The translations under genes were made by a program, and so were the position numbers. From positions 1 through 64,000 of the IMG/VR virus record IMGVR_UViG_3300047548_001136: DNA of 64,000 nt. One strand, given 5' to 3'. The notes beneath the pieces were generated by a model. The model was not told the DNA's origin, did no database searches, and saw only the letters and a program-made list of their open reading frames with translations. Shown in pieces: positions 25,511 through 53,028 of this stretch. Source of the stretch: a virus. The first letter of the stretch is position 1; the number at the start of each line of letters is the position of its first letter.

Positions 25511-26575
25511 ATGGCAAAACCGTTTGATTTAACAAAATTTCGCAAAGAACTAACAAAGAGCATTGATGGGCTTTCCATTGGCTTTAATGATCCAACTGAT
25601 TGGATCTCAACAGGCAATTATACACTAAACTATCTCATTAGCGGCGACTTCCATAAGGGTATTCCTATGGGTAAGGTTACTGTGTTTGCTGGTGAGTCGG
25701 GTGCAGGTAAATCTTACATTTGCTCAGGCAACATTGTAAAGAATGCACAAGAGCAGGGCATCTTCGTTGTGCTCATTGATACTGAAAACGCACTTGATGA
25801 AGAATGGCTACGTGCCTTAGGCGTTGATACAGATGAATCAAAGCTAATGAAGCTTAACATGGCTATGATTGATGACGTTGCCAAGATGATTAGCACCTTT
25901 ATGAAGGACTACAAGACAATGCCTACTGAGGAACGTCCTAAGGTATTGTTCGTACTTGACTCACTTGGTATGTTGCTAACTCCAACAGACGTTAATCAGT
26001 TTGAAGCTGGTGATATGAAGGGCGACATGGGTCGTAAGCCTAAGGCACTTACTGCACTTGTACGCAACTGCGTCAATATGTTTGGTAGTATGAACGTTGG
26101 GTTAGTAGCAACTAATCACACTTATGCATCACAAGACATGTTTGATCCAGATGATAAGATTTCAGGTGGGCAAGGTTTTATTTACGCAAGTTCAATTGTA
26201 GTAGCTATGCGTAAGCTTAAGCTTAAGGAAGATGAAGATGGTAACAAGATCAGCGAAGTACGTGGTATTCGTGCTGCATGTAAGGTGATGAAAACACGTT
26301 ACGCAAAGCCATTTGAAAGCGTACAAGTAAAGATCCCGTATGATACTGGTATGAGCCCAACATCTGGTCTAATGGATTTGTTTGAAGCAAAGGGTATCCT
26401 CAAGAAGGATGGCAATAAGCTTACCTACACATCTAAAAAGACTGGAGAAATTATCAAAGAGTTCCGTAAGGGATGGACAGACGATAAGCTACAAGTTATT
26501 ATGGATGAGTGGGATGAGTCAACTGTTCCAGAAGGTGTAGTTGAAGAAGTTACTCATGCTGACGTTGAGGAATAA
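25511..26575 (+). CDS. uvsX: UvsX, RecA-like recombinase
   Basis: 354 aa. Walker A GESGAGKS (61-68), Walker B VLFVLD (145-150), the L1/L2-side region MGRKPKALTALVRN and VGLVATNHTYASQD, and IPYDTGMSPTSGLMDL near the C-terminus match UvsX. It polymerises on ssDNA, aided by gp32 and UvsY, for strand exchange and recombination-dependent replication. It is followed by a small acidic protein gene and uvsY. Confidence 0.95.
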   Translation: MAKPFDLTKFRKELTKSIDGLSIGFNDPTDWISTGNYTLNYLISGDFHKGIPMGKVTVFAGESGAGKSYICSGNIVKNAQEQGIFVVLIDTENALDEEWLRALGVDTDESKLMKLNMAMIDDVAKMISTFMKDYKTMPTEERPKVLFVLDSLGMLLTPTDVNQFEAGDMKGDMGRKPKALTALVRNCVNMFGSMNVGLVATNHTYASQDMFDPDDKISGGQGFIYASSIVVAMRKLKLKEDEDGNKISEVRGIRAACKVMKTRYAKPFESVQVKIPYDTGMSPTSGLMDLFEAKGILKKDGNKLTYTSKKTGEIIKEFRKGWTDDKLQVIMDEWDESTVPEGVVEEVTHADVEE

Positions 26576-28000: not shown

Positions 28001-28101
28001 TAAAGTTTTTTAAAAGATTGTATAACAAGATTAAAATTGAAATCATGTATCGTAAAAGATTAAAAGAGTTAAAAAAACGTGACCCGTTCATCTACGACTA
28101 A
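27997..28101 (+). CDS. Tiny basic amphipathic protein, 34 aa
   Basis: An ATGA overlap with the methyltransferase stop, then MIKFFKRLYNKIKIEIMYRK and a C-terminal LKELKKRDPFIYD. The RDPFIY ending on a Lys-rich helix is a pattern I recall from T4-like cyanophage small proteins, which supports it as a real gene. The carbamoyltransferase GTG lies inside its 3' end. Role unknown; membrane-surface or RNA binding is possible. Confidence 0.55.
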   Translation: MIKFFKRLYNKIKIEIMYRKRLKELKKRDPFIYD

Positions 28102-29575
28102 TTACCATCTTGGCATCAGTCAAGGATACCATGATGCGGGCTTAGCATACATAAGTCCCGATGGTAATATCTTACATGCATCACATAGCGAACGTTATAG
28201 TAAAAAGAAAAATGATCCAAATTTAAGCTATCAACAATTTGTTGATTGTGAGTTCACTGGGTTTGAAAATATTACAGTAAACTATTATGAACGACCTTGG
28301 CTTACAAATCTAAGGCGTTTACGTGCTGGCCAAAGTCCATCTAGCATAACCCCTGTAATTAACAAACTTAAATATTTTGATCTACCACGTAAGATGAATA
28401 AGTGGGGACATCATTTGTCACATGCAGCAGCCGCATTTCAAACAAGTCCGTTTGATCATAGCGCGGTTGTAATTGTAGATGCAATTGGAGAATGGGATAC
28501 CGTAAGTATTTGGTATGCACACTATGATGATAAAGGAGTTGCAAAATATCAACGATTATGGCGACGCAAATATCCTCATAGCTTAGGATTATTCTATACA
28601 GCAATGACCCGGCGTGTTGGATTGCGCCCAATGGAAGATGAGTACGTTCTTATGGGAATGGCTGCTTACGGACATTCACCAATGCTATATGATAGGATGC
28701 GTAAAGAGTTTGTAGACAGCATTGATGAATGTAGGTTCAAACAAAACTTTCATGCAGGTATTGATGGGCGTTGGGCAGATAACTATAAAGACGAACATAT
28801 TGCCGCTGCAACTCAACAGCTAACAGAAGAAATTCTTTATAGCATACATGAACGAGCACTTAACATAACAAGTGAAACAAATGTCTGTTACGGCGGCGGC
28901 GTTGCACTCAATTGTAAGTTTAATGCTAAGTTGCACGAACTTTGGAGTAACATTTGGATTTGTCCTAACCCAGGAGACTGTGGATCTGCACTTGGTGCAG
29001 CGGCATTAAGTTATGGGAAAAAGCTTAACTGGCAAAATGCTTATCTTGGACATATGATTCCTGGTGATTTATCAATTAAAGATGTTGTTGACACTTTATA
29101 TAAAGAAAAGATAGTTGGGATTGCTAACAGTTATGCAGAATGGGGACCAAGGGCACTTGGTAATCGTAGCTTACTTGCTAACCCAAGAGGTGAAAATATT
29201 AAAGATCGTGTTAACGACATTAAGAAACGCCAAAAGTATAGACCATTTGCGCCTGCTATATTAGAAGAACACGCTAAGGATTACTTTAACTTAAATTCAG
29301 CTTGCGATTATCGTTATATGCAATATGCAGTTAAAGCAAATGAGAATACGCAACTGTTTTATCCAGCTGTTTGTCACATTGATGGCACTGCTAGGGTTCA
29401 AGTTGTTCCAAAAGATAATAGCAACATGCGTAATATTCTTGAAGCATGGTATGCAAAGACAAAGTGTCCAATGCTACTAAACACTAGCTTAAACATACGC
29501 GGTGAACCAATGATAGATAGCAGGGTTGATGCACAGCGTTTTACAACAATGTATGGAGTTAAAGTTTTTAGTTAA
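28079..29575 (+). CDS. Carbamoyltransferase (NodU/CmcH family)
   Basis: 498 aa. The N-terminal Kae1-like part has LGISQGYHDAGLAYI, HHLSHAAAAF (metal-binding His residues), VVIVDAIGEWDTVSIW and GGVALNCKFN. The C-terminal domain has EWGPRALGNRSLLANPR and RPFAPAILEE, hallmarks of carbamoyltransferases that use carbamoyl phosphate and ATP. GTG at 28079 is the only start that includes the conserved N-terminal strand. The target could be a sugar made by this island or a hydroxymethylated base in phage DNA; the sequence does not decide. Confidence 0.9.
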   Translation: MTRSSTTNYHLGISQGYHDAGLAYISPDGNILHASHSERYSKKKNDPNLSYQQFVDCEFTGFENITVNYYERPWLTNLRRLRAGQSPSSITPVINKLKYFDLPRKMNKWGHHLSHAAAAFQTSPFDHSAVVIVDAIGEWDTVSIWYAHYDDKGVAKYQRLWRRKYPHSLGLFYTAMTRRVGLRPMEDEYVLMGMAAYGHSPMLYDRMRKEFVDSIDECRFKQNFHAGIDGRWADNYKDEHIAAATQQLTEEILYSIHERALNITSETNVCYGGGVALNCKFNAKLHELWSNIWICPNPGDCGSALGAAALSYGKKLNWQNAYLGHMIPGDLSIKDVVDTLYKEKIVGIANSYAEWGPRALGNRSLLANPRGENIKDRVNDIKKRQKYRPFAPAILEEHAKDYFNLNSACDYRYMQYAVKANENTQLFYPAVCHIDGTARVQVVPKDNSNMRNILEAWYAKTKCPMLLNTSLNIRGEPMIDSRVDAQRFTTMYGVKVFS

Positions 29576-30362
29576 AAATAGGATTTCTAAAAACGTACTT
29601 TTCACCTGTTATTTCTTCTACTTTGTTCCTAAATTGTTTAGTTGCATCAATGCATTCATCATATGCATTATAATAAACAGTACCTTGATTTAGTAAATCG
29701 TCGCTGTATTTTGTTGCTATTTTTGGTCTATGCTTCATAGTGTAAAATTTGAGAGGTAAGTTATCTCCAATTATATATGTTTTCTTTTTAAGCAAAGTTG
29801 CCCAATATGCTACATGATAGCTGCTCGTAAAAATACATTTGTGATCTGCAATAGATTCAATTACTGTTTCAATATTGTTTGGTTTATTAAACATACGAGT
29901 ATGATTGCGACTGAATTCAATTGGTCTTTTCCAATGATCAACTACTAAGAATTTCTTTGTTGGTTTTTTATCTAAATTTTGTAAAATCGCAGGGTGTAAT
30001 ACACTTGGGCAAGGAACCCATGTTTGATTAGTTTCAATAAAATCTCTTGCTCCAAACAAATCAAATGTTGATTTAATTTCAGATTGCAATGTGTTTGTTA
30101 ATCCTACGCCCCAAGAGATTGTGTGTTTTGATTTAATTTTTAACAATATGTTATCAACTAAATCGATAAATTTTTTAGTTGAAAAAATAGCACCACCACC
30201 AATAATAATTGTGTCAACTTCCATCTCCGGGACATTTTCATCATACACATCAATCATTATACCGTTTTTATCAGTAGTTAGATAATGCATTGCACAACTG
30301 TATAGATCTCCGGGGTTTTGAAAATCTCTTCTAAACAGATAAGCGTATTTTAACTTTGACAT
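29568..30362 (-). CDS. Polysaccharide pyruvyltransferase-like protein
   Basis: 264 aa. The layout GDLYSCAMHY, VDTIIIGGGAIFSTKKFID, HTISWGVGLT, FGARD, WVPCPSVLHP, then CIFTSSYHVAYWATLLKKKTYIIG, matches the CsaB/WcaK pyruvyltransferase family (GT-B-like), which adds ketal pyruvate to surface sugars. The ATG at 30362 follows AAGAGAAC. It converges with the carbamoyltransferase gene (8-base overlap) and overlaps the upstream minus-strand gene by 13 bases. Confidence 0.7.
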   Translation of the reverse strand: MSKLKYAYLFRRDFQNPGDLYSCAMHYLTTDKNGIMIDVYDENVPEMEVDTIIIGGGAIFSTKKFIDLVDNILLKIKSKHTISWGVGLTNTLQSEIKSTFDLFGARDFIETNQTWVPCPSVLHPAILQNLDKKPTKKFLVVDHWKRPIEFSRNHTRMFNKPNNIETVIESIADHKCIFTSSYHVAYWATLLKKKTYIIGDNLPLKFYTMKHRPKIATKYSDDLLNQGTVYYNAYDECIDATKQFRNKVEEITGEKYVFRNPIFN

Positions 30363-31219
30363 AGTTGTTCTCTTAACATAAGCCAAACTTGTGACAGTTC
30401 TTCTTCTAACCATTCTTTATGACATAATTCAATTAACCATTGATCTCTATCCGGCATTAATAAGTTTTCTATCAAAGAAATTTCTTTATTAGATACATCG
30501 TAAGCTAAACTTTCTTGGCTAACAATTGCTGGAGTTCCTTCAATAATAGAACTTAAACCGCTGTTGCTACTATGACTTATTGTACAGTGGCAGTGAGCGA
30601 GCAATGGTTCCAAATCAAAACTATCATATGTTTGTTGTATGTGTTTAGGTACGTTCCATTCTACTTGATAATTTTTATAAAAATCAGTGTCGATGTTAAA
30701 AAATATGTTCTCTCTGTAACGCGGATGGCTACGTATTACAATTGGTCTTTGCGTGTATTTTCTTATTTCTAACACAGTTCTTTTATAGTATTCATTCATT
30801 GGTGGCATATTGCGCCACTGTTCACTTTTTCCATGCTGCCCGCATATTAAAACATATTCGCCATTGTGCCAAGGTTTAAGGTTTATATTCAACTTTTTTG
30901 GGCGATCATTATCAAATTTTTTTATTGCAGGAAAGATTGCACTGCGAGTAATCCCATTTACAGATAATCGCCATGTTTGATTTCGTATTAGCCCGCCCAC
31001 TTCTATAACTATTACGGGTTTATTTTTTCCTCTATAATGATTCCAAACATTGTGATTGCGGCTCATCTTACCGTTCCACAAAACACTCCATATTAATGCG
31101 GCATCTGCATCATACGTGCCTTCAACAATTTGATCAGTTTTGCTCATATAAGATGTTAAATCTTGATACAAGTTAATACCATTGCCGGGAACTTGACTAG
31201 GCCAAACACTAATTTTCAT
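30350..31219 (-). CDS. GT-B glycosyltransferase-like protein, KpsS/glycerophosphotransferase type, copy 1
   Basis: 289 aa. YVLICGQHGKSEQW, LEIRKYTQRPIVIRSHPRYRE, CHCTISHSSNSGLSSIIEGTPAIV and a C-terminal LSLIENLLMPDRDQWL-like segment follow the pattern of capsule-sugar (KpsS/KpsC) and CDP-glycerol transferases: a late His/Ser-rich loop, then a G-x-P strand. Two paralogs lie next to it on the plus strand. ATG at 31219 was chosen because upstream codons are hydrophobic and would overlap the divergent gene. Confidence 0.6.
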   Translation of the reverse strand: MKISVWPSQVPGNGINLYQDLTSYMSKTDQIVEGTYDADAALIWSVLWNGKMSRNHNVWNHYRGKNKPVIVIEVGGLIRNQTWRLSVNGITRSAIFPAIKKFDNDRPKKLNINLKPWHNGEYVLICGQHGKSEQWRNMPPMNEYYKRTVLEIRKYTQRPIVIRSHPRYRENIFFNIDTDFYKNYQVEWNVPKHIQQTYDSFDLEPLLAHCHCTISHSSNSGLSSIIEGTPAIVSQESLAYDVSNKEISLIENLLMPDRDQWLIELCHKEWLEEELSQVWLMLREQLCQS

Positions 31220-31231
31220 ATATATAATTAT

Positions 31232-32005
31232 ATGAATTATTATTATCCAGAAATTGGCAGTCAAAGCAAGGCAACTTGGGTGCTCGATTCCTTAGTATCT
31301 GCAGATACTAACGCGACTATTATTCGAGATAATACAGTAAACAATGGACCTGGTGTATTTTGGGGGTTAGTTAAAAATAATTACAATTTAATTAAAGAAC
31401 ATCAAGCAAAAAACGTTCCCTATTACTTTACAGATATGCCTTATTGGGGAAGATGGATGGGCAATAATAGAAGCGAGTGCTATTGGAGAGTTATCCCAAA
31501 TAATCTGCACTGTAGTTGGGTTGAAGATTATCCTTCAGATAGATTTAACAAATTAAATGTTAATGTAAAAGAATGGCGTACAAAAGGTGATCATATTTTA
31601 GTTTGTCCAAGTAGTGTTACAATGTCTAGATTTTATAATAGATCAAACTGGTTAAATGAAACACTTGTTGAGCTAAGAAAGTATACAGATCGTCCAATTA
31701 AAATTAGAAATAAACCACGCGATAATAAAACAAGTGGACCAAGAGCAGCAACTATTCCTTTTGAGGATGATGTTAAAGATGCTTGGGCAGTAGTTACTTT
31801 AGCGAGTATTGCAGGTGTAGAAGCAGCATGTTTAGGTATCCCTGTTTTTGCGGATGTAAATAGCCCTTGCAGTCAATTAGGAAATTTGGATTTATCATTG
31901 ATTGAAAACCCAAAATTAGTTGATAGAAAAAAATGGTTAAATACGTTATCTTATTATCAATATACCGAAGAAGAACTTAAAAAAGGTATGGGTGTATTTA
32001 AATGA
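31232..32005 (+). CDS. GT-B glycosyltransferase-like protein, copy 2
   Basis: 257 aa. It shares with copy 1 the blocks ILVCPSS, LVELRKYTDRPIKIRNKPR, AGVEAACLGIPVFADVNSPC and LSLIENPKLVDRKKWLNTL. The loop that is SHSSNSG in copy 1 is VTLASIAG here. It diverges from copy 1 with only 12 bases between the start codons, in a TATATAATTATA palindrome that also offers TATAAT on both strands; no ribosome site is visible. A start further upstream would overlap copy 1. Confidence 0.55.
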   Translation: MNYYYPEIGSQSKATWVLDSLVSADTNATIIRDNTVNNGPGVFWGLVKNNYNLIKEHQAKNVPYYFTDMPYWGRWMGNNRSECYWRVIPNNLHCSWVEDYPSDRFNKLNVNVKEWRTKGDHILVCPSSVTMSRFYNRSNWLNETLVELRKYTDRPIKIRNKPRDNKTSGPRAATIPFEDDVKDAWAVVTLASIAGVEAACLGIPVFADVNSPCSQLGNLDLSLIENPKLVDRKKWLNTLSYYQYTEEELKKGMGVFK

Positions 32006-32859
32006 TTTTGTTTTATTTGAATAATCAAAGTAAACATTATTCTAGAATTGTACGAAACTTGTATAGAAGTTATACAGGTGAAAAGCAAATACAATCAACT
32101 CAAAGATTTGCAATAAACAGAGAGTTGAATGATCGTGCTGATATAATTGTATTCGCAGGCATGTTAAGGGGTGACGGGTTAATATATCAATATTGTAAGG
32201 AAAACAATAAGAACTTTATCTATATTGATCATGCTTATATAGATAGAGGTTATAATGCAGGAAATTCTAACGGAGAGTGGATGAGATTAACTTACAACGC
32301 ATTTACTTGGTCTAAGAATTTGCCTGAAAGCAATGATCGTTGGCAAACGTACTTTGGTAGAAAGTATCAATTAAAACCGTGGAATAGTCACGGCGGTAAT
32401 AAAATTTTAGTTTTACCACCTAGTGAAGCAACAAAGTTTTTATTTCCTGAAAGCGTAGAATGGACTGAAAAAGCTATCGAGGAAATTAAAAAGTATACAT
32501 CAGATAAAATACACATACGAGAAAAACCAGATCAACCGGTTTCAGATCCTATAACTAATCAAGTGATAGATAGAAAAAAATTTATTCATGAGAAAACAAT
32601 AGAGCAGGATATGATGGAAGCAAAGTTAATTGTAACTTTTAACAGTGCTGTCCCTGTGCTTGGAACAATACAAGGTATACCATGCTATTGTTCCTCACAT
32701 GCAGCCGCATATCCAATGAATATCGATCTAAGTAATATTCATAAACCTCCAGAACCAAAACGTCAAGAATGGTTAAATCAGTTAGTGTATCATCAATACA
32801 ATACTGCTGAAATGAAAAATGGAGAATTTTGGAAACTAATTCAAAAGTATTATGTATAA
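32002..32859 (+). CDS. GT-B glycosyltransferase-like protein, copy 3
   Basis: 285 aa. Paralog of the two preceding proteins: ILVLPPSEATKF, IEEIKKYTSDKIHIREKPD, VTFNSAVPVLGTIQGIPCYCSSHAA, and the end KRQEWLNQLVYHQYNTAEMKNG, which parallels copy 2 (RKKWLNTLSYYQYTEEELKKG). It overlaps copy 2 by 4 bases and converges with the FkbM gene. Tandem amplification of one family suggests different acceptor sugars. Confidence 0.55.
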   Translation: MILFYLNNQSKHYSRIVRNLYRSYTGEKQIQSTQRFAINRELNDRADIIVFAGMLRGDGLIYQYCKENNKNFIYIDHAYIDRGYNAGNSNGEWMRLTYNAFTWSKNLPESNDRWQTYFGRKYQLKPWNSHGGNKILVLPPSEATKFLFPESVEWTEKAIEEIKKYTSDKIHIREKPDQPVSDPITNQVIDRKKFIHEKTIEQDMMEAKLIVTFNSAVPVLGTIQGIPCYCSSHAAAYPMNIDLSNIHKPPEPKRQEWLNQLVYHQYNTAEMKNGEFWKLIQKYYV

Positions 32860-33497
32860 AACTTTAGCAGGTAATCATGTTTGGATTTACCTAATAGCCT
32901 ATACCCAAGCTTTTGTAAAAATTCTACAGCTTGTATGTTGCCGTTTTCGCATTCTACAATTAACCCAGGTTTACTCCTCATTAAAGTTTCAACTCCGCCT
33001 TTGAATGCAAGAAGCTCTGCACCTTGAATATCAATTTTAATAAAAGTTGGGCTTAAGTTAAATGAATCAAGCGTTGCACAATCAACTATATGAGGAACAG
33101 TTAAACTTCCAACAGAAAACATTGTAGCTGATCCAGTGTTAGAGTTTGACGGAGTTGTATATAAAGTAATGTTACCTGGAGTATCGCTTAGCGCAGTATT
33201 ATGAAGTTTAACATTAGTTAAATCTTGTGTGTTAGCAACTAAGCATTCGTAATTAGCAGGCATTGGTTCAAAACAATCAATTGTTTTAGCACCAATTTTA
33301 TTAAACCAACGTGTCCATAAACCAACATTAGCGCCAATATCTAATACATGACTAAAGTCAAATAAATGAGAGTGGTTCAGTATGAATTTTTTTATGTTAA
33401 TTTGATATTCAGGATTGATGCCAAGCATCATTATAAAATGTTCTTCGCAGTCTGGAAAATTCCAAATTTGTCCGTCTGAGCTTTGATATTGTTTCAT
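32850..33497 (-). CDS. FkbM-family methyltransferase
   Basis: 215 aa. VLDIGANVGLWTRWF (SAM motif I), CFEPMPANYECLVANT and TFIKIDIQGAELLAFKGG are diagnostic of FkbM-type O-methyltransferases, which often act on surface sugars. The ATG at 33497 overlaps the previous stop (ATGA); longer readings through TTG/GTG lack a better ribosome site. Confidence 0.85.
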   Translation of the reverse strand: MKQYQSSDGQIWNFPDCEEHFIMMLGINPEYQINIKKFILNHSHLFDFSHVLDIGANVGLWTRWFNKIGAKTIDCFEPMPANYECLVANTQDLTNVKLHNTALSDTPGNITLYTTPSNSNTGSATMFSVGSLTVPHIVDCATLDSFNLSPTFIKIDIQGAELLAFKGGVETLMRSKPGLIVECENGNIQAVEFLQKLGYRLLGKSKHDYLLKFYT

Positions 33498-34270
33498 TTC
33501 CACCAACCTATGCTATCACTTTTAATTAGTCGTTCAGTTTTTTTACTGCGACCAGTTTGTTTTCTTGGACCCTTCATGTGATCCATATATTCACCTAATA
33601 CACAATTAATAAAAGGATGCCCAGCTACAAAATTTGGTGTAATGTTTTGATTTACCATCCCCTTTGCTTCATATTCTTTTCGAGCTACGTCAAATACATA
33701 GCTATCATGCCATTCTGTTAAATTAAAGATAGTGTCTTTTCTATAGTAATCTACAAAAGTTTCCCAAAAATCTTTCATTAACGGATGATTTGTATGATAC
33801 ACTACCCAACCGCATTCACTATATTGTTTTATTCTTCCTAAGTAGGCAATGCCAAATTTGTTTGGGAAATTATCTAAAAGAAAACTTTCAGGAACTTTTC
33901 TATGTGTAATAGTATCAGCATCTACCCATACTATGCTTTTTCCTAGATTAGTTTGCACTGCATCATATAACGAAAATACTTTATGACTAAATCTTACTGC
34001 ATCAAACAGAAAATTTTTCTTATCATCTTTGTATCCGTTAGCAACAGGATTATTTGCATGTCTTGTTTTAAAGTTTACTAAATCTTGATTTAGTAGCAAA
34101 TCTTTTACAATGATGCGAGGATTAATAAGTGAATTATCTAACTTACAGTTTTCAGTATAAACTATGATTTGTTGATTACTAGGCCAATATTTTAAAAATG
34201 CTTCAAGCATTTTTTTACCATAAAGATTGTAGCCATCTAAATTAAATGTAGTTACTAACAAATAAGACAT
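33494..34270 (-). CDS. Glycosyltransferase, GT-A type (DxD)
   Basis: 258 aa. An N-terminal Rossmann-like strand (SYLLVTTFNLDGYNLY), the DxD metal/nucleotide motif IVWVDADTITHRK (about 115-127), and a later YSECGWVVYHTNHP with FNLTEWHDSYVFD are typical of small GT-A glycosyltransferases. It is translationally coupled to both neighbours (TAATG upstream, ATGA downstream). Donor and acceptor unknown. Confidence 0.7.
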   Translation of the reverse strand: MSYLLVTTFNLDGYNLYGKKMLEAFLKYWPSNQQIIVYTENCKLDNSLINPRIIVKDLLLNQDLVNFKTRHANNPVANGYKDDKKNFLFDAVRFSHKVFSLYDAVQTNLGKSIVWVDADTITHRKVPESFLLDNFPNKFGIAYLGRIKQYSECGWVVYHTNHPLMKDFWETFVDYYRKDTIFNLTEWHDSYVFDVARKEYEAKGMVNQNITPNFVAGHPFINCVLGEYMDHMKGPRKQTGRSKKTERLIKSDSIGWWK

Positions 34271-34959
34271 TACCAACTCTTTATAAAATCTGCTCTTTCG
34301 TCATACCATTCTTGACTATATTCACAATTTTCATAACCTGGCATAAATGGCATGCCAAGCGTATAATGTATTAAACTTGGTTTGCCATGTTGTTCTTCAT
34401 TATAGTGTCCTACTAGGTAATTCCACTCAATTGGTAAACTTCCAATTTCTTCGTCGTCGAGCCATTGGAAACGATGCAGGTAACTCATCTCCTGCTTGTT
34501 CATAAATTCAGGATATAGGAAATCTTTATTTTTACGATGACCACAATTGAATAGCATACAGCTACTCCAGTTTTTGCGTGGATAAGCATGTTGCACTTGC
34601 CCATCCATTTTTGCTACGCCATCTTGCACATTGTATTCGTGCTTAACAACTTGCACAGCATAACGTTCATCTGCTAGATCAAATAGCTTGTTTACGTCTT
34701 GACGTGCTAAGAAATCACAGTCAATGAATACTGCCCAACCTTCGTAACCATTTAAGTATGGAACTAAGAAACGAGTAAAAGTAAACTGAGTGCTAGCTTT
34801 TGGATCATCCAGTCGAGTTACTAATCCTTTAGATTTTAGTTCATCTAACTTAAGTGGTAATACTTCGATGTCGTTGCTTAAACGATGAATGCTATGCTTA
34901 CATACTTGATAAGCAATATCCTCTCTAGGATCCCATCCAATATAAACTCGTCTTTTCAT
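34270..34959 (-). CDS. Glycosyltransferase, GT8-like (DxD)
   Basis: 229 aa. It begins RRVYIGWDPREDIAYQVCKHSI, has GWAVFIDCDFLARQDVNKLF with DxD, a CMLFNCG segment and IEWNYLVGHY, and a C-terminal His. This matches phage GT8-like transferases. The ATG at 34959 is set by a GGGGAATT ribosome site. A TATAAATA late octamer lies on this strand at 34993-35000, so it leads a three-gene minus-strand operon (two GTs, FkbM). Confidence 0.72.
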   Translation of the reverse strand: MKRRVYIGWDPREDIAYQVCKHSIHRLSNDIEVLPLKLDELKSKGLVTRLDDPKASTQFTFTRFLVPYLNGYEGWAVFIDCDFLARQDVNKLFDLADERYAVQVVKHEYNVQDGVAKMDGQVQHAYPRKNWSSCMLFNCGHRKNKDFLYPEFMNKQEMSYLHRFQWLDDEEIGSLPIEWNYLVGHYNEEQHGKPSLIHYTLGMPFMPGYENCEYSQEWYDERADFIKSW

Positions 34960-34992
34960 TATTAAATTCCCCAAACAATTAAAATATAGTAT

Positions 34993-35000
34993 TATTTATA
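34993..35000 (-). promoter_or_regulatory. Late promoter on minus strand, TATAAATA
   Basis: On the minus strand TATAAATA lies 33 bases before the ATG at 34959, with a GGGGAA ribosome site in between. Confidence 0.65.
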
Positions 35001-35020
35001 GTACTTTTAAGGAACGAACT

Positions 35021-36187
35021 ATGAATTATTCGCTTGCATCCAATACGTGGGATGAACAAGAAGTAGAAGCAATTAAAAGTGTAATTGCGTCTGAACGATA
35101 CACTATGGGACCTCACGTAAAGAAATTTGAAGAGCAATTTGCTGAGGTAATGGGTGCAAAACATGCAGTAATGGTAAACTCTGGGTCAAGTGCAAATTTA
35201 CTAGGTATTGCAGCACTTGTACTAGATCCACAAAATAATATACAGCCAGGTGATGAAGTAATTGTTCCAGCAGTTAGTTGGAGCACAACATATTTCCCAG
35301 TTACACAGTACGGGTTAAAGCTGATGTTTGTGGACATTGATAAAGAAACACTTAATATCAATGTTGATGAAATTGAGCAAGCAATTACTCCACGCACTAA
35401 AGCTATATTTGCAGTGAATTTGCTGGGTAATAGTTGCGAGTATGACAAGCTAATAGACATTTGTAACAAGCATAATCTGTTATTGCTCGAAGATAATTGC
35501 GGTGCACTAGGTGCAAGCTATAATGGTAAGATGCTAGGCACTATTGGTAAAGTTGGGACATTTAGTTTCTTCTTTAGCCATCATATCCAAACAATGGAAG
35601 GCGGCATGATCTTAACTAACGATCAGCGCACAGAGCAATACTTGCGTAGCTTAAGAGCACACGGTTGGATTAGAGATTTACCAGACGATAATTGCATTTA
35701 CAACAAAACAGGAAACCTATTTGAAGATGCGTTTAAGTTTGTGTTGCCAGGATACAATGTTCGTCCACTTGAAATGAGCGGTGCAATTGGGTGTGTGCAG
35801 CTAACAAAGATGAACAAGATGATTGAGACACGTAGAAAAAATTATACATACTTGAGTAGACTTTTCCTATCAAACCCAAATGTAATGCTACAAAAAGAAG
35901 TTGGTAATGCAAGTTGGTTTGGTTTTAGTTTGTTACTACAAAACAAACTTGAAGGTCGTAGAAAAGAAGTAATTGCTAAGTTACAAGAAGCGGGCATTGA
36001 ATCAAGACCAATCTCAGGTGGAAACTTTATTAACAATCCTGTTGCAAAGTATTTGAACTACGAAGTGCGTAGCAAGTTAACAAATGCAAATTATGTAGAT
36101 GATAACGGATTTTTTGTTGGTAATGATTGCAGAGATTTAAAAGACAATTTAGTTCTGCTACAAACAGCTATTGAAGGCGTAAAATGA
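35021..36187 (+). CDS. PLP-dependent GDP-4-keto-6-deoxymannose 3-dehydratase-like (ColD type)
   Basis: 388 aa, the same length as E. coli ColD. It is of the DegT/DnrJ/EryC1 aspartate-aminotransferase fold: VNSGSSANLLG, PAVSWSTTYFPV, LLLEDNCGALGASYNGK. The PLP-lysine position reads FSFFFSHHIQTMEGGM with His187-His188 in place of Lys, the signature of ColD/RfbH dehydratases that remove the 3-hydroxyl instead of transaminating. The next gene encodes the enzyme that makes its likely substrate, overlapping by 4 bases. Together they would yield a GDP-4-keto-3,6-dideoxy sugar; no ColC-like enzyme is in the window. Confidence 0.82.
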   Translation: MNYSLASNTWDEQEVEAIKSVIASERYTMGPHVKKFEEQFAEVMGAKHAVMVNSGSSANLLGIAALVLDPQNNIQPGDEVIVPAVSWSTTYFPVTQYGLKLMFVDIDKETLNINVDEIEQAITPRTKAIFAVNLLGNSCEYDKLIDICNKHNLLLLEDNCGALGASYNGKMLGTIGKVGTFSFFFSHHIQTMEGGMILTNDQRTEQYLRSLRAHGWIRDLPDDNCIYNKTGNLFEDAFKFVLPGYNVRPLEMSGAIGCVQLTKMNKMIETRRKNYTYLSRLFLSNPNVMLQKEVGNASWFGFSLLLQNKLEGRRKEVIAKLQEAGIESRPISGGNFINNPVAKYLNYEVRSKLTNANYVDDNGFFVGNDCRDLKDNLVLLQTAIEGVK

Positions 36188-37161
36188 AAGCAGCATTAAT
36201 AACAGGATTTGCAGGTCAAGACGCATGTTATCTTGCTGACATGTTGTTAGCTAAAGGTTACAAAGTATATGGCACTGTAAATGCTGCTGTTGATATGGAC
36301 AATGTGCATTACCTTGATCTGTTTAATAAAGGACTTGCAATTATCCAATGTGATATAACTGATTTATCGAGTGTTATTAACGCTGTTACAGAAACTAACC
36401 CAAACGAGTTTTACAACCTTGCAGCACAAAGTTCACCTGCACAATCTTGGAAATCAAAACATATTACCGCACTTACGAATGGTATTGGAACGTTAAACTG
36501 CCTAGAAGCCATTAAGCTGGTTGATCCAACTATACGATTTTTTCAAGCAGCAACGGCTGAGATATTTGGTGATTCACACGTTAACGGATATCAAACAGAA
36601 ACAACCCCGTGTATTCCGCGTAATCCTTACGGAACATCAAAGTTGTTTGCTTACAATACAGTAAGCAACTATAGAGATTATCATAAGATGTTTGCCTGCA
36701 ATGGCATTTTGTATAATCACGAATCTCCGTTACGTGGTGAAAACTTTGTAACACGCAAAATTACACTTGGTGTAGCAAAGATTGTTTTAGGTAAACAAAA
36801 GAAGATTACACTTGGTGATCTAAATGCAGAGCGTGATTGGGGGTTTGCAGGTGATTATGTTGAAGCAATGTGGCTAATGCTCCAAGCAAAGACACCAAAT
36901 GATTACATTATTGCAACAGGTATAAAGCATACAATTGCTGATCTATGCAGGGAAGCGTTTAAAGTTGTAGGTATACTTGATTGGGAAAAGTATGTTGAAA
37001 CTGATCCGCAGTTCCAACGTGGAGTAGAGGCAAGAACTAAAGCCGACCCTTCTAAGATATTAAATGACTTAAATTGGAAAGCTAATACTAGCTTTGAACG
37101 ATTAATTGAAATTATGGTGATGGCTGATATAAAAAGGTTTTCGCTCAACGAGCGTAAATAA
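36184..37161 (+). CDS. gmd: GDP-mannose 4,6-dehydratase
   Basis: 325 aa, short-chain dehydrogenase fold. The N-terminal NADP site is ALITGFAGQDACYLAD (third Gly of GxxGxxG is Ala). EFYNLAAQSSPAQSW, ATAEIFGDSH, the catalytic RNPYGTSK (Tyr and Lys), YNHESPLRGENFVTRKIT and LGDLNAERDWGFAGDYVEAMW are all characteristic of GMD. The product, GDP-4-keto-6-deoxymannose, is the substrate expected for the preceding ColD-type enzyme. Confidence 0.92.
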   Translation: MKAALITGFAGQDACYLADMLLAKGYKVYGTVNAAVDMDNVHYLDLFNKGLAIIQCDITDLSSVINAVTETNPNEFYNLAAQSSPAQSWKSKHITALTNGIGTLNCLEAIKLVDPTIRFFQAATAEIFGDSHVNGYQTETTPCIPRNPYGTSKLFAYNTVSNYRDYHKMFACNGILYNHESPLRGENFVTRKITLGVAKIVLGKQKKITLGDLNAERDWGFAGDYVEAMWLMLQAKTPNDYIIATGIKHTIADLCREAFKVVGILDWEKYVETDPQFQRGVEARTKADPSKILNDLNWKANTSFERLIEIMVMADIKRFSLNERK

Positions 37162-37169
37162 TTTATTAA

Positions 37170-37943
37170 ATGAAAGACCGTGCCATGATAATAGGTATTT
37201 GCACTGGGGGTTTTGATCCCATACACAGCGGACATATAAATTATCTAAAGGAAGCTTCAACACACTGCGATATGTTGATCGTTGGCGTAAACAGCGATCA
37301 ATGGCTTGAGCGTAAAAAAGGTAAAGCGTTTATGCCACTAGAAGAAAGAATTGCAGTTTTATCTGCATTGCGTGTAGTTGATAAAGTAATCGCATTTGAT
37401 GATAGCGATGGCACAGCAAGAGAAGCAATACGTCAAGTTAAGTCTATGTATCCATCTGCTGTTATTAAATTTATGAATGGCGGGGATAGAAACTCTGGTA
37501 ATGTTCCAGAGCAAAGTGAGGATGTTGAGTTTGTATTTGGTGTAGGCGGAGACAACAAAGCTAATTCAAGCAGTTGGATATTACAAGAGTGGAAGCATCC
37601 AAAAACAATTCGTCCATGGGGTTATTACCGTGTGCTGCATACTGAAGGCAAGCATATTAAAGTGAAAGAGCTTGTTGTCGATCCAGGCAAAACTTTAAGC
37701 AGTCAACGACATTTTTATAGAGCTGAATATTGGATCGTAAGTAAGGGCAAAGCTGCTGTTGGTATTGGTGAAGTTGAAAGCGTATTTCACCTAGAGGAGC
37801 AAGAAGATACTCACATACAAACTGGTCAATGGCATAGACTGTTCAATGACTCTGATCAACCGCTGCACCTTGTAGAAATACAACATGGTCCATTGTGTGA
37901 AGAAGAAGATATTCAAAGGCGTGATTTAGGTGGACCGCTATAA
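37170..37943 (+). CDS. Fusion: HxGH nucleotidyltransferase + mannose-6-phosphate isomerase-type cupin
   Basis: 257 aa with two domains. Residues 7-135 are a cytidylyltransferase-like domain (GGFDPIHSGHINYLKEA, HxGH at 19-22; LPLEER-like MPLEER; a late NSSSW) as in HldE/GlmU-unlike RfaE2 proteins. Residues about 143-252 match the type II phosphomannose isomerase cupin: RPWGYYRVL, IKVKELVVDPGKTLSSQRHFYRAEYWIV, HRLFNDSDQPLHLVEIQHG. Normal ManC proteins join this cupin to a GT-A guanylyltransferase, so this pairing is unusual. It probably supplies an activated sugar for the pathway. ATG at 37185 is an alternative start. Confidence 0.78.
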   Translation: MKDRAMIIGICTGGFDPIHSGHINYLKEASTHCDMLIVGVNSDQWLERKKGKAFMPLEERIAVLSALRVVDKVIAFDDSDGTAREAIRQVKSMYPSAVIKFMNGGDRNSGNVPEQSEDVEFVFGVGGDNKANSSSWILQEWKHPKTIRPWGYYRVLHTEGKHIKVKELVVDPGKTLSSQRHFYRAEYWIVSKGKAAVGIGEVESVFHLEEQEDTHIQTGQWHRLFNDSDQPLHLVEIQHGPLCEEEDIQRRDLGGPL

Positions 37944-38655
37944 TTTAATCGTTGTTCGCTGGGGAACACTTTACAGCGCAGAGCATGTTAATAATTTGTT
38001 TGAAGGCGCAAAGCGTTACACAAGCGTTCCTTTTAAATTCTACGTCTTTACGGATAATACTAAAGATTTACCACAAGATAAAGGGTGGCAATTTATTAAG
38101 CTTCCTGAGTACAATGCACCTGTAGATCGCGGGTGGTGGTACAAGATGGAAATCTTTAACGAGCAGCACAAATTAACTGGTAAAAATTTATACATTGATT
38201 TAGACGCAATAATCATTAAAGATCTTAAGATTTTTTGGGACCTTATTTTAACTGATGGACTATATATTTGCAGAGATTTCAACAGGCAGTTTTTGCCTAG
38301 TTATCAAGCTTGCAACAGTAGCGTGATGGGATGGAAAAACGGGGAATTTGATTACTTGTTTAGAAAGTTCATGCTCAACTCAAAAGCAAATATGGGAAAA
38401 TATCGAGGAGATCAGGACTATATCCAAGCACATGCTTTATCTAGGATATTCTGGCCAGATGATATAGCTATGAGTTGGAAATGGGAATGTTGGAGAAGAG
38501 GTAAAGTTGGGTCTGATAATTACAAGTCAGATAAGAAGCAAACCTTTATTAAGCAGGATACACGTATACTAGTTTTCCACGGGAAACCTAAACCTGAGGA
38601 CTGCGAAGATCCCCGTATGGTACAACTGTGGAAAGGCACAATAAAGCACAAGTAG
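37930..38655 (+). CDS. Glycosyltransferase, GT-A type (DxD)
   Basis: 241 aa from GTG at 37930, overlapping the previous gene by 14 bases. YNLIVVRWGTLYSAEHVNNL opens the Rossmann-like fold, NLYIDLDAIIIKDL carries the DxD, and CNSSVMGWKNG then RGDQDYIQAHAL follow as in phage GT-A transferases. The C-terminal RILVFHGKPKPEDC has a conserved His-Gly. It closes the glycan island. Confidence 0.72.
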   Translation: MDRYNLIVVRWGTLYSAEHVNNLFEGAKRYTSVPFKFYVFTDNTKDLPQDKGWQFIKLPEYNAPVDRGWWYKMEIFNEQHKLTGKNLYIDLDAIIIKDLKIFWDLILTDGLYICRDFNRQFLPSYQACNSSVMGWKNGEFDYLFRKFMLNSKANMGKYRGDQDYIQAHALSRIFWPDDIAMSWKWECWRRGKVGSDNYKSDKKQTFIKQDTRILVFHGKPKPEDCEDPRMVQLWKGTIKHK

Positions 38656-47509: not shown

Positions 47510-48109
47510 ATGAGTAAATTTAAACCAACGTATCTTTACGTTAAGCAACATAATCAAACTGGTCTAAAATATTTTGGAAAAACAACAAAAGATCCACTCA
47601 TTTATAAGGGATCAGGACTTTATTGGAAAAATCACTTAAAAGTTCACGGAGATGATATTACAACTGTATGGTTTATGCTTTTTGAAAACGAACAAACATT
47701 AACTGAATACGCTAATAAATTCTCATTGGACCACAATATTGCTGAGTCAACAGAATGGGCTAATCTTAAACCAGAAAACGGACTTGATGGCTTCACACAA
47801 GGTCACAAATACAACGTTGGTTCAAAAAGACCTAATTTATCAGAATACAACTTAAGACCCGAAGTCATTGCAAAACGTAAAGAAAATAATAAAGGCAATG
47901 ATTATGCTAAAGCGTTAAAAGGATATAAACAATCTAGCGATCATGTTGAGAAAAGGATGAAAGCACATCGAGGTATCAAAAAAGGTCCTCAAACAGAAGC
48001 ACATATTAAAAGTAGATTTCAGAAAAAGCATTGTGTACACTGTGAAGGTGAGTTTACTCCTGTAAATTTTTCAAGATGGCACGGTGACAAATGCAAACAG
48101 AAAATGTAA
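47510..48109 (+). CDS. GIY-YIG homing endonuclease (Seg-like)
   Basis: 199 aa. The nuclease part reads YLYVKQHNQTGLKYFGKT (Y-x-Y ... Y-x-G-K) with a downstream YKGSGLYWKNHLKVHG and the catalytic Glu in FENEQTLTEY. A basic linker with GHKYNVGSKRP-type motifs follows, and the end CVHCEGEFTPVNFSRWHGDKC is the zinc-finger motif typical of T4 Seg/Tev enzymes. It lies directly before the DnaE-like gene and overlaps its start by 19 bases. A late octamer precedes it. Confidence 0.88.
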   Translation: MSKFKPTYLYVKQHNQTGLKYFGKTTKDPLIYKGSGLYWKNHLKVHGDDITTVWFMLFENEQTLTEYANKFSLDHNIAESTEWANLKPENGLDGFTQGHKYNVGSKRPNLSEYNLRPEVIAKRKENNKGNDYAKALKGYKQSSDHVEKRMKAHRGIKKGPQTEAHIKSRFQKKHCVHCEGEFTPVNFSRWHGDKCKQKM

Positions 48110-48685: not shown

Positions 48686-49363
48686 ATGATTACACTAATT
48701 GGGGCTGGTTGCAGTTTTACGTTAGGGTCAGAGTTAGCTGACGATAACGACTCTAAAAGTCCAAGTAATTACACTTGGGCTGCTTTACTCGCAAAAAAGT
48801 TTAATATGAATTATCATTGCGTTGCTAAGCCAGGTATTAGTAACCAAACTATCGCCAGGACTCTTTTTGATACTATAGTTGAAAAACAACATCAAGAGTT
48901 AGCTGTTGCTGTAATGTGGTCTTTTACAAATAGATACGAAATATTTTCTAATAATGATTGGTTAACAGTAAGTAGTCAAACACGTAATATCGAACCAAAA
49001 GTTAATACATGGTATGAGATTTGTGGCGATAGCGAAGTATATGAAATATATACTAGTTTAACTAGTTACTTGATGATCCAAGAATTGCTTGAGCGTAAAA
49101 ATATCCCATACATGTTTACAAGTGCAGATGTTTGTATTTTCAATCGTTATTTTTATAAGCATCCTACTACAAGTATTCGTAGTTTACAAACTGAAATTAA
49201 TTGGGATAAATGGGTTTGGATTGGAAAAAATAAAGAAGGTTTCTTTACATGGGGTAGTCGTTATCCTGCAGGTCCTTATCTACATCCATTAGAAGAAGCC
49301 CATGAAGAATTAGCTAATATGTTATTGCCATCTGCAAAAAAATTGTTAAGGCTTGCGGACTAG
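48686..49363 (+). CDS. SGNH/GDSL-like hydrolase
   Basis: 225 aa. GAGCSFTLGSE provides the nucleophile Ser (G-x-S-x-T block), PGISNQTIARTL gives the block with Asn, and HPLEEAHEELANML at the end supplies the catalytic His region. Such proteins are esterases or acetyl/acyl-removing enzymes; the substrate is unknown. It starts one base after the preceding stop and converges with the next gene. Confidence 0.65.
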   Translation: MITLIGAGCSFTLGSELADDNDSKSPSNYTWAALLAKKFNMNYHCVAKPGISNQTIARTLFDTIVEKQHQELAVAVMWSFTNRYEIFSNNDWLTVSSQTRNIEPKVNTWYEICGDSEVYEIYTSLTSYLMIQELLERKNIPYMFTSADVCIFNRYFYKHPTTSIRSLQTEINWDKWVWIGKNKEGFFTWGSRYPAGPYLHPLEEAHEELANMLLPSAKKLLRLAD

Positions 49364-49792: not shown

Positions 49793-50773
49793 ATGAATTC
49801 TATTCAAGATGCAATACGTTCTGTAATTCCACCTAAGCATAAAAATGCTACCAAGGGTTGGATAAGCTTTAATGCTCCTTGTTGCACCCATAATGGCGAA
49901 ACTAAGGACATAAAAGGTCGCGGCGGTATGGTTTTTGAAGATGGTGGAGTAATCTATCATTGCTTTAATTGTGGGTTTAAGACTGGTTGGAGACCAGGGT
50001 TGCACTTCGGATTAAAGATCCGTAAACTTATGGAATGGATGGGTATGGACGAAGGCCTCATTATGAGGCTACAGTTCGACGCATTGCGTGACCTTGATGA
50101 GGAAGTTGTTTATCAAGAGCGTATTAAAGAAGCAATACACTTTGAACCACGCGATCTTCCAGAAAACACAGTTAGTTTAGCATCCGCACAAGAGCAGGAT
50201 GCATTAGATGTTGCAAAGTATCTTGATAGCAGGGGCTTTGAATTGCACGACTTTGACTGGATGTGGAGTCCCGCAGAAGGATACAACAGGCGCCTTATAA
50301 TCCCATACACTTGGGAAAATAAAGTTGTAGGTTATACTGCTCGTAGTATTGATTACAACGGCAGCAAAGGCAAATATATTCAACACGTTGGTAGTGATTA
50401 CGTGTTTGGTATGGATCAACAAAAGCGTGATAGTAAGTTTGCACTGTTAAGCGAAGGTCCACTTGATGCAATTTCACTTGGCGGACTTGCAGTACTAACT
50501 AATGAAGTCAATGACCGCAAAGCCGAGATAATCGATACACTGGGACGAGAAATTATCGTTGTACCGGACAGAGACAAAGCAGGCAAGCAATTAGTTAATG
50601 CTGCACTTAAGTATGGATGGAGCGTTGCTTTTCCAGACTGGCAAGATGACATTAAGGATATTGCGGATGCTTGTTTACGCTATGGTAGACTTTACACGTT
50701 AAGATCAATATTATGTAGTAAGCAGTCTAATAAATTAAAGATAGAGTTATTAAGGAAGCGATATGGAATCTAA
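49793..50773 (+). CDS. 61: DNA primase gp61
   Basis: 326 aa. A zinc-ribbon region CCTHNG (30-35) with HCFNCGFK (56-63), then a TOPRIM-type core with LLSEGPLDAISLGG (acidic Glu-Asp) and IIVVPDRDKAGKQL (DxD). This is the T4 gp61 primase layout that makes RNA primers with gp41. The last 11 bases, ATGGAATCTAA, contain both its stop and the start of the radical-SAM gene. Confidence 0.93.
   Translation: MNSIQDAIRSVIPPKHKNATKGWISFNAPCCTHNGETKDIKGRGGMVFEDGGVIYHCFNCGFKTGWRPGLHFGLKIRKLMEWMGMDEGLIMRLQFDALRDLDEEVVYQERIKEAIHFEPRDLPENTVSLASAQEQDALDVAKYLDSRGFELHDFDWMWSPAEGYNRRLIIPYTWENKVVGYTARSIDYNGSKGKYIQHVGSDYVFGMDQQKRDSKFALLSEGPLDAISLGGLAVLTNEVNDRKAEIIDTLGREIIVVPDRDKAGKQLVNAALKYGWSVAFPDWQDDIKDIADACLRYGRLYTLRSILCSKQSNKLKIELLRKRYGI
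50763..50773 (+). repeat. Direct repeat, left copy: ATGGAATCTAA
   Basis: Exact 11-base repeat of 51643-51653; flanking bases differ. Each copy is at once the end of one gene (GGA ATC TAA) and the start of the next (ATG GAA TCT AA). Confidence 0.9.
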
Positions 50774-51653
50774 ATTTCCTTTAGATTTTAGTAATTTTGA
50801 ATTAGAGATTACTAACAGATGTAATCTAGCTTGTCCAAGGTGTGCAAGAACAGACTTTATTGAAAAGTTTCCTAAAGCATGGCTTAACCACGATTTAAGC
50901 TTAGATCATTTTAAAATTTTTATTGCTCCAGTACTAGATCAAATAGAAATATTTGAATTTAAAGGAACGATGGGCGACCCAATATTTCATCCTGAATTCA
51001 TTGAATGGATTAAATGGGCAAAAGGTCAAAATAAAAAAGTATACATTCATACCAACGGACAAAGCGGCACAACTCTTTGGAAAAAGCTTGCATGGTTATT
51101 AGATAAAAATGATAAGGTAGTTGTTGGTATTGACGGCACGCCTGAAAATTTTATGACATATAGAGTGAATGCAAGATGGAAAAACATTGTTGAATGTGCA
51201 ACTGCTTTAAAAGATTCGACTACGTTAATATGGCAATTTATAGTTTTTAATTACAATCAAAATGATATTCAGGAAGCACGTAAGTTAAGTAAAGAATTAA
51301 GCTTCGATGAGTTTTTTATTTTACATAGCGATCGTTGGGTTGATGAAAATGATTGGTTAAAGCCAACAGAAAATTCTAAAGAACGTCCCAATGATAAGCA
51401 AGATATTGATCCTTTGTGTATTAAAAAACCAATGCATATTGTAACTGCTGATGGTTATTATATGCCGTGTTGTATGTTAATTGATCATCGATTTAGATAC
51501 AAAACCCCGTGGTCGAAGACATTTGATATACATCAAGTAACCATAAACGATGTAATAAAATCTAGCATAGCAAAGGATTTCTTTGCTAAACTAACTAGTG
51601 AGTCTGCACCTAACTATTGCAGATTTAATTGCGGAAAGTGTAATGGAATCTAA
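50763..51653 (+). CDS. Radical SAM protein, SPASM-like C-terminus
   Basis: 296 aa. CNLACPRC (C20, C24, C27) is the canonical CxxxCxxC [4Fe-4S] site, preceded by a FELEITNR strand. FEFKGTMGDPIFHPEFIEW is the GGE-like/GDP segment, and IHTNGQSGTTLW follows. The end CIKKPMHIVTADGYYMPCCM ... CRFNCGKCNGI has a Cys cluster like SPASM auxiliary cluster proteins. Between primase and helicase it is out of place, and an exact 11-bp direct repeat bounds the gene. Substrate unknown: peptide or sugar modification are both possible. Confidence 0.88.
   Translation: MESKFPLDFSNFELEITNRCNLACPRCARTDFIEKFPKAWLNHDLSLDHFKIFIAPVLDQIEIFEFKGTMGDPIFHPEFIEWIKWAKGQNKKVYIHTNGQSGTTLWKKLAWLLDKNDKVVVGIDGTPENFMTYRVNARWKNIVECATALKDSTTLIWQFIVFNYNQNDIQEARKLSKELSFDEFFILHSDRWVDENDWLKPTENSKERPNDKQDIDPLCIKKPMHIVTADGYYMPCCMLIDHRFRYKTPWSKTFDIHQVTINDVIKSSIAKDFFAKLTSESAPNYCRFNCGKCNGI
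51643..51653 (+). repeat. Direct repeat, right copy: ATGGAATCTAA
   Basis: Right copy of the 11-base repeat, overlapping the radical-SAM stop and the gp41 start. Confidence 0.9.
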
Positions 51654-53028
51654 GTATTCGGTAGATCTACAAAAACTATTTTTAGAAATAATGCTCGCAG
51701 ATGCACAGTCGTTTGTGCGTGTACAAAACATTTATGATCCCGTTAACTTTGATAAGAGTTTGCGATCAGCAGCAACTTTCTTACAGGACTATAGTAAGAA
51801 ATATAATTCATTACCGACAAACGAACAAGTTAAGGCTGGAGCAGGTGTTAGCCTACAAAAGCTCGATGCTGTTGATGACAGCATGATTGATTGGTTTATG
51901 GATGAGTTTGAATCATTCACACGTCATGAAACACTGCTACGTGTAATTCTCAAAAGTGCTGATCTCATTGAAAAAGGTGAGTATGACCCAATTGAAAAAC
52001 TAGTTAAGGATGCAGTACAAATCTCACTAACAAGAGATTTAGGTACTGATTATTTTGATGATCCGCGATCACGTTTGATGAAGTTAAAGTCCAACAACGG
52101 ACAAATGTCTACTGGGTGGCCAACGCTTGATAACAAACTATATGGTGGTTTTAATAGAGGCGAACTTGAAATCTTTGCAGGCGGTTCAGGTGCAGGTAAG
52201 TCGCTGTTTATGCAGAACTTGGCACTTAACTGGCTTATGAATGGACTTGATGGTGTATACATTACACTAGAACTTAGCGAGGAACTTTGTTCTATGCGTA
52301 TTGACAGTATGCTTACAGGTGTAACAAGCAAAGAGATCTTCAAAGAAATTGATACAGTTGAAATGAAGATTAAAATGGTTGGTAAGAAGGCAGGCAACTT
52401 GCGTATCAAATACATGCCAGCACAAAGCAACGTAAATGATATACGTGCTTACTTAAAAGAACTGCAAGTTCAAACTGGTCGTAAGATTAGTTACTTGTGT
52501 GTAGACTATCTCGATCTTCTAATGCCAGTTAGCGCAAAAGTAAGTCCAAGCGATCTATTCGTAAAAGACAAATACGTATCAGAAGAGTTGCGTAACTTAG
52601 CTCGCGAACTTGATATGGTACTTGTAACAGCATCGCAGTTAAACAGAGGTGCAGTTGAAGAAGTTGAGTTTGATCACAGTCACATCTCAGGGGGTATTTC
52701 TAAGATCAATACAGCAGACAACGTATTTGGTATTTTTACAAGCCGCAGCATGAAGGAACAAGGGCGTTATCAACTACAGTTAATGAAAACACGTAGTTCC
52801 AGCGGTGTTGGACAAAAAGTTGAACTTGAGTTTGATGTAAACACATTGCGTATTATTGATACCGGTGAAGATATTCAAAGTAACTTCAAAAAGCCAAGTT
52901 CTAACATTATGGATAGCATTAAAAATAAGACAAATGTTACTCCAAGTGAAGTAACAGATACACCAAAAGTAACTGCGGAAGTGCAAAGTGCTAAGTTAAA
53001 GCAGATGCTTGCTAACTTGAAAAAGTAA
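51643..53028 (+). CDS. 41: Replicative DNA helicase gp41
   Basis: 461 aa, DnaB-like. A helical N-terminal domain (1-110), linker, then RecA-like motor with TGWPTLDNKLYGGFNRGELEIFAGGSGAGKS (Walker A 180-187), VYITLELSEE, Walker B SYLCVDYLDLL, and LVTASQLNRG (H3-type Gln). The C-terminal tail is Lys/Thr-rich. It unwinds DNA ahead of the leading strand with gp61. ATG at 51643 lies within the right copy of the direct repeat. Confidence 0.94.
   Translation: MESKYSVDLQKLFLEIMLADAQSFVRVQNIYDPVNFDKSLRSAATFLQDYSKKYNSLPTNEQVKAGAGVSLQKLDAVDDSMIDWFMDEFESFTRHETLLRVILKSADLIEKGEYDPIEKLVKDAVQISLTRDLGTDYFDDPRSRLMKLKSNNGQMSTGWPTLDNKLYGGFNRGELEIFAGGSGAGKSLFMQNLALNWLMNGLDGVYITLELSEELCSMRIDSMLTGVTSKEIFKEIDTVEMKIKMVGKKAGNLRIKYMPAQSNVNDIRAYLKELQVQTGRKISYLCVDYLDLLMPVSAKVSPSDLFVKDKYVSEELRNLARELDMVLVTASQLNRGAVEEVEFDHSHISGGISKINTADNVFGIFTSRSMKEQGRYQLQLMKTRSSSGVGQKVELEFDVNTLRIIDTGEDIQSNFKKPSSNIMDSIKNKTNVTPSEVTDTPKVTAEVQSAKLKQMLANLKK

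What the first reader, a model, noticed from the sequence alone, without database searches (positions are those of the whole stretch)
50763..51653. Radical-SAM gene bounded by an exact 11-bp direct repeat between primase and helicase
ATGGAATCTAA occurs at the gp61/radical-SAM junction and again at the radical-SAM/gp41 junction, each time serving as the stop of one gene and the start of the next. Removing the gene and one repeat would restore a direct gp61-gp41 overlap. This looks like a clean cassette insertion by short-repeat recombination into the primosome operon. The inserted enzyme has a CxxxCxxC site and a C-terminal Cys cluster.
Basis: partly seen in the sequence, partly recalled or inferred. 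Interest (0 to 1): 0.72.

Follow-up and report, generated by a model that had tools for sequence, protein, structure and literature searches.

The report
Swappable enzyme gene in phage replication operon
A large environmental phage carries an enzyme gene slotted between its DNA primase and helicase genes; the repeat at its edges is the duplicated overlap of those two genes, and related phages have the slot empty or filled with other genes, so this is a clear but mostly ordinary case of phage gene swapping.

Summary
ATGGAATCTAA occurs twice in the window, at 50763 and 51643, and each copy is a stop/start overlap. More distant relatives have one near-copy (ATGGCATCTAA or ATGGCGTCTAA).

The interpretation needs correcting. 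The repeat is the primase/helicase overlap, duplicated so that both proteins stay intact; nothing shows that short-repeat recombination did it. The gene is not a recent arrival. Homologues down to about 30% identity occupy the same slot in dozens of viral contigs, and an 11-member clade sits instead behind the clamp-loader gene. The slot also holds SGNH-like proteins, other radical-SAM families, a methyltransferase and other genes. Trees show cargo exchange between phages, and one relative (L005) is a recombinant joined in the last ~100 nt of primase. Neighbouring junctions vary just as much, so the slot is not privileged.

The enzyme is under purifying selection and is a SPASM-type radical SAM outside every curated subfamily tested. 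Its substrate is unknown. Glycan or small-molecule tailoring is my best guess; a nucleotide role is not excluded.

The parts
49793..50773 (+). gp61-like DNA primase (326 aa), ends in the 5' repeat copy
   Evidence: phrog_47 DNA primase E=3.6e-36
50752..50758 (+). AAGGAAG, probable ribosome-binding site for the radical-SAM ORF, inside the primase 3' end
   Evidence: sequence read; inference
50763..50773 (+). 5' copy of ATGGAATCTAA: primase stop and radical-SAM start
50763..51653 (+). SPASM-type radical-SAM enzyme (296 aa)
   Evidence: Pfam Radical_SAM E=2.3e-9 and SPASM E=3e-5, both above gathering scores; phrog_21308 E=7.5e-29
50820..50843 (+). CxxxCxxC (C20, C24, C27), SAM [4Fe-4S] site
   Evidence: invariant in 45 of 45 homologues
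51417..51641 (+). auxiliary-cluster cysteines C219, C236, C237, C286, C290, C293
   Evidence: C219, C236, C237 in 45/45; C286 and C290 in 43/45; C293 in only 4/45
51633..51638 (+). GGAAAG, probable ribosome-binding site for the helicase, lying within the codons of the CGKC motif
   Evidence: sequence read; inference
51643..51653 (+). 3' copy of ATGGAATCTAA: radical-SAM stop and helicase start
51643..53028 (+). gp41-like replicative helicase (461 aa)
   Evidence: DnaB_C E=2.2e-21; phrog_19 E=2.5e-68
25511..26575 (+). UvsX-like recombinase, a plausible agent of homologous cassette exchange
   Evidence: phrog_97 E=3.7e-69; role in exchange is inference

Best explanation
A phage cargo gene for a SPASM-type radical-SAM enzyme occupies a plastic slot between core replication genes. 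In this phage clade the empty slot is an 11-nt overlap of the primase and helicase genes. The gene entered (or re-entered) that overlap and the 11 nt were duplicated, so primase keeps its stop, helicase keeps its start, and the new ORF starts in the first copy and stops in the second. All three ORFs remain translationally coupled. Slot contents are then gained, lost and swapped between related phages, most likely by homologous recombination in the flanking core genes. The enzyme probably does SAM-radical chemistry on a host- or phage-made small molecule or sugar. Shown: the architecture, empty sites, allele exchange, purifying selection. Inferred: translational coupling, the route of the original duplication, the substrate.
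For: Exact repeat equal to the ORF overlap. Single-copy empty sites in L003/L011 and near-copies in nine others. Carriers in the window's clade are not one clade: AU p=1.6e-8 on helicase, 5.7e-47 on primase. The radical-SAM label needs 14-15 changes on the helicase tree, at least 10 forced by well-supported branches. A radical-SAM clade (L158, L160, L162, L166) is rejected as a helicase clade, p=1.5e-6. Distance ratio d(win,L001)/d(win,L010) is 0.71 (0.58-0.86) for the enzyme against 0.40 (0.30-0.53) and 0.30 (0.20-0.45) for primase and helicase. L005 switches from window-like to L004-like sequence in the last ~100 nt of primase and stays L004-like through its SGNH-like insert. dN/dS 0.04-0.14.
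Against: The tree cannot say whether L003/L011 are never-filled sites or precise losses: monophyly of win/L001/L002 is not rejected (AU p=0.10 and 0.16). Unequal rates could explain part of the distance-ratio result. Synonymous distance is lower in the enzyme than in primase (0.46 against 1.07) but its interval slightly overlaps that of helicase. No expression or activity data exist.
Confidence: 0.8

Rival explanations
1. One reading: recombination between short repeats inserted the gene as a clean cassette, and the same repeats allow precise excision.
For: The excision product predicted from the window matches the real empty sites without a gap. A second, unrelated insert (L022, SGNH-like) also repeats 9 nt of the helicase start.
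Against: Among 41 filled junctions only the window, L022 and L001 show a run of identity of at least 4 nt after the start codon; most filled sites have no repeat. 11 bp is the minimum duplication needed to keep both neighbours intact, so the repeat has a selective explanation. The located exchange (L005) used longer homology in primase.
Confidence: 0.2
2. The enzyme is an old, vertically inherited primosome gene that has been lost many times; the empty sites are scars of loss.
For: Homologues in the same slot over a wide clade (helicase 60-69% identity); 33 of 49 rows of one helicase clade carry it.
Against: Enzyme and helicase trees conflict. A single sequence overlapping in two frames in eleven empty relatives points to an empty ancestor for the window's clade, since a filled ancestor would have to carry the same 11 nt in two different genes beforehand.
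Confidence: 0.2
3. The enzyme acts on nucleotides or DNA and belongs functionally to the replisome.
For: The same family is found in two replication loci: primase|helicase, and just behind the clamp-loader gene in an 11-row clade. In the two clamp-loader genomes where it could be checked the primosome slot is empty. Weak resemblance to viperin-like and BlsE nucleoside enzymes.
Against: Empty slots are common, so the enzyme is dispensable. Unrelated cargo (methyltransferase, SGNH-like, B12 radical-SAM) uses the same slot. Neighbouring core-gene junctions are equally plastic.
Confidence: 0.12

Closest known systems
Free-standing homing endonuclease genes of T4 (seg, mob), PMC2988022
   Same: Extra ORFs placed between core genes; several overlap the upstream ORF (segF by 11 bp, mobE through UAAUGA), and translational coupling was proposed there.
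   Different: This ORF is a metabolic enzyme with no endonuclease domain, and it overlaps both neighbours through duplicate copies of one sequence.
Interchangeable radical-SAM module of Campylobacter phages CP220/CPt10, PMC2853527
   Same: Related radical-SAM proteins (27-31% identity) in an interchangeable phage module.
   Different: There several radical-SAM genes lie in a multi-gene metabolic block beside amidinotransferase and sugar-nucleotide genes; here one gene lies inside a replication operon.
phrog_21308, radical SAM domain-containing protein
   Same: Best family match, E=7.5e-29 over residues 12-283.
   Different: The match covers only positions 415-699 of a 735-position model.
NF033640 twitch-domain radical-SAM proteins
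   Same: Radical-SAM core; true members fill the same slot in L015 and L033.
   Different: The window enzyme scores 31 bits against a cut-off of 170.

Membership tests
Radical SAM superfamily with SPASM domain | CxxxCxxC near the N-terminus and radical-SAM domain | tested here: met
   Pfam PF04055 38.1 bits, cut-off 29.5; three Cys invariant in 45/45
Radical SAM superfamily with SPASM domain | C-terminal SPASM auxiliary-cluster domain | tested here: met
   PF13186 24.7 bits, cut-off 21.5; C219/C236/C237/C286/C290 conserved. Number of clusters not testable; the C-terminal 20 residues are modelled poorly.
NF033640 twitch radical-SAM | score above curated cut-off | tested here: not met
   31.1 bits against 170
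TIGR04317 tungsten-cofactor oxidoreductase maturase | score above curated cut-off | tested here: not met
   60.7 bits against 380
Viperin / pVip | score above curated cut-off of the prokaryotic viperin model | tested here: not met
   Homologues L107 and L151 score 23-30 bits against 180; the window protein does not match this model at E<=0.001; pVip in PADLOC only over residues 14-104, E=1.4e-5
Mobile element with target-site duplication | short direct repeat flanking the insert and single copy at the empty site | tested here: met
Mobile element with target-site duplication | own mobility gene or terminal structures | tested here: not met
   The insert is one enzyme ORF from repeat to repeat
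SPASM peptide maturases (RiPP) | precursor peptide gene next to the enzyme | tested here: inconclusive
   No ORF fits between primase, enzyme and helicase; a precursor elsewhere was not searched for

The most novel reading that the evidence does not exclude
The enzyme is a replisome-linked radical-SAM protein that modifies nucleotides or DNA: one family found in two different replication loci (primase|helicase and behind the clamp loader), apparently one site per genome.
Probability: 0.1. Interest if true: 0.75.

Novelty: new variant of a known kind. Interest (0 to 1): 0.4.

Why it matters
It gives a clean natural series (empty, filled, refilled with something else) at one junction of a phage replication operon, with the minimal sequence change that lets a gene enter an overlapping gene pair without harming either neighbour. 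A review of T4-related genomes notes that junctions between core genes and imported DNA usually show no recognisable signature (PMC2993671); here a signature, its empty counterpart and a recombinant are all visible. It also marks out a phage radical-SAM family of unknown substrate with deep conservation.

Tried and rejected
Recent one-off insertion: rejected by dozens of homologues in the same slot. Privileged hotspot: rejected by a control; in the helicase-query set the helicase-to-next-gene junction has at least 601 nt of extra DNA in 42 of 62 loci, against 21 of 68 for primase-helicase, of which 38 are empty. A general rule that every insert copies the helicase start: only 3 of 41 junctions fit. 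Sharp identity step at the cassette edges between the window and L082/L002/L001: none seen. L093 as a recombinant with its breakpoint at the junction: its primase and helicase trees disagree, but no clear DNA step was found. Cellular source: seven weak bacterial or archaeal matches, all MAG contigs; plasmids gave only distant Nocardia radical-SAM proteins. Substrate by fold: best PDB matches (BlsE, viperin-like, EpeE, SuiB, MoaA, DesII) span sugars, nucleotides and peptides at TM about 0.5-0.6, so no call is possible. AU test for L029/L115/L127/L134 did not finish.

Full report
What is there. The 11-mer ATGGAATCTAA is present at 50763 and 51643 and nowhere else in the window. Each copy holds the stop of one gene and the start of the next: primase (49793-50773), radical-SAM enzyme (50763-51653), helicase (51643-53028). 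The bases on either side of the two copies differ, so the repeat is neither longer nor shorter than the ORF overlap. A separate contig with identical sequence shows both copies; L082 shows the 5' copy and L002 the 3' copy. This makes an assembly artefact unlikely.

Empty sites. A helicase search of viral contigs returned 80 loci. Among the closest relatives, L003 (helicase 92%) and L011 (91%) have no insert and one exact copy of the 11-mer, used at once as primase stop and helicase start. L006-L009, L012 and L092-L095 are the same with ATGGCATCTAA or ATGGCGTCTAA. Joining the window's flanks over one repeat copy gives a sequence that aligns to both exact empty sites with no gap. Because the empty state is an overlap, an insertion that spares both neighbours must leave two copies of the overlap. 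The repeat is therefore the expected footprint of a tolerated insertion and does not by itself show how the DNA got in.

Other filled sites. L001 (enzyme 70%) and L010 (61%) have decayed copies: ATGGAATATAG with ATGGAATCTAA, and ATGGTATCTAG with ATGGCAAATAA. Homologues at 30-52% identity sit between the same two genes in dozens of further contigs. Most of those have an 8-nt 5' overlap (ATGCTTRA type) and a 4-nt 3' overlap (ATGA), with no repeat. The family is thus an old user of this slot, and the repeat belongs to the window's clade. Other loci hold different genes there: SGNH-like proteins, twitch radical-SAM proteins above the NF033640 cut-off, a B12-type radical-SAM protein and a methyltransferase. 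The SGNH-like label rests on motif reading for most of these; Pfam gave only one weak match (L022, Lipase_GDSL E=0.0047, below cut-off).

Exchange. On a 109-row helicase tree the enzyme's presence changes 14-15 times, at least 10 of them forced by supported branches. The enzyme tree and the helicase tree conflict: a fully supported enzyme clade is rejected as a helicase clade (p=1.5e-6), and the carriers in the window's clade are rejected as one clade on both helicase and primase. The window-L001 enzyme distance is too large for the flanks. L005 is a recombinant whose switch lies in the last ~100 nt of primase. The window encodes a UvsX-like recombinase. Homologous exchange through the core genes is the best-supported route for moving slot contents between relatives; the first duplication event itself is not resolved.

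A second address. In an 11-row clade of the enzyme tree (100% support) the gene lies just behind a clamp-loader gene (phrog_168, E=4.1e-74), often near another radical-SAM gene and an SGNH-like gene. In the two such genomes where the primase-helicase junction could be read, it was empty. This could mean a link to replication, or only that replication operons of these phages have several tolerant junctions. The control favours the second view: the junction downstream of helicase is filled even more often.

The enzyme. CxxxCxxC, the GxxGD motif and C219/C236/C237/C286/C290 are nearly invariant over 45 homologues, and dN/dS is 0.04-0.14, so it is a working enzyme under selection. C293 of the CGKC motif is kept in only 4 of 45. 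The predicted model (pLDDT 77) matches many radical-SAM folds without singling out a substrate class. Context gives a weak lead: the window carries a glycan-synthesis island (carbamoyltransferase, GDP-mannose dehydratase, DegT aminotransferase, FkbM methyltransferase), and related phage radical-SAM genes in CP220 and Mosig lie beside sugar-nucleotide, amidino- or carbamoyltransferase genes. I therefore think small-molecule or glycan tailoring the most likely function, at about 0.3 confidence.

Expression. AAGGAAG before the first start lies in the primase tail, and GGAAAG before the helicase start lies within the codons of the enzyme's own CGKC motif. The gene thus seems to supply its downstream neighbour with a ribosome-binding site. 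This is read from sequence and untested.

Verdict. The proposed mechanism is not shown, and the picture of a single recent cassette is wrong. This is a well-documented variant of known phage cargo exchange, around a little-described enzyme family.

Noticed in passing
window 28079-38655: Glycan-synthesis island: carbamoyltransferase, polysaccharide pyruvyl transferase, FkbM methyltransferase, glycosyltransferase, DegT aminotransferase, GDP-mannose dehydratase, cytidylyltransferase/cupin.
   Followed up: partly
window 48686-49363: SGNH-like protein (weak DUF6071 match) upstream of primase; homologues near the clamp-loader radical-SAM loci L149, L151-L153, L165 and L169.
   Followed up: partly
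window 47510-48109: ORF that looks like a GIY-YIG endonuclease by eye (no family match); among the fetched loci found only in the window's own sequence and in L082.
   Followed up: no
window 19443-20093: ORF that looks like an HNH-type endonuclease, next to the terminase-like ORF; read by eye only.
   Followed up: no
window 10976-12301 and 12482-13816: Two adjacent proteins with similar Hint/intein-like N-termini (GFxxGTxVLMADGK ... VANxxRVHN) and low-complexity tails.
   Followed up: no
L084:5995-6896, L173:4971-5961: The cysteine-rich C-terminal part is a separate ORF beside the radical-SAM core ORF (before it in L084, after it in L173).
   Followed up: no
L165 (G009, 320-kb phage): Six matches to the radical-SAM query in one phage genome, one of them directly downstream of helicase.
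   Followed up: no
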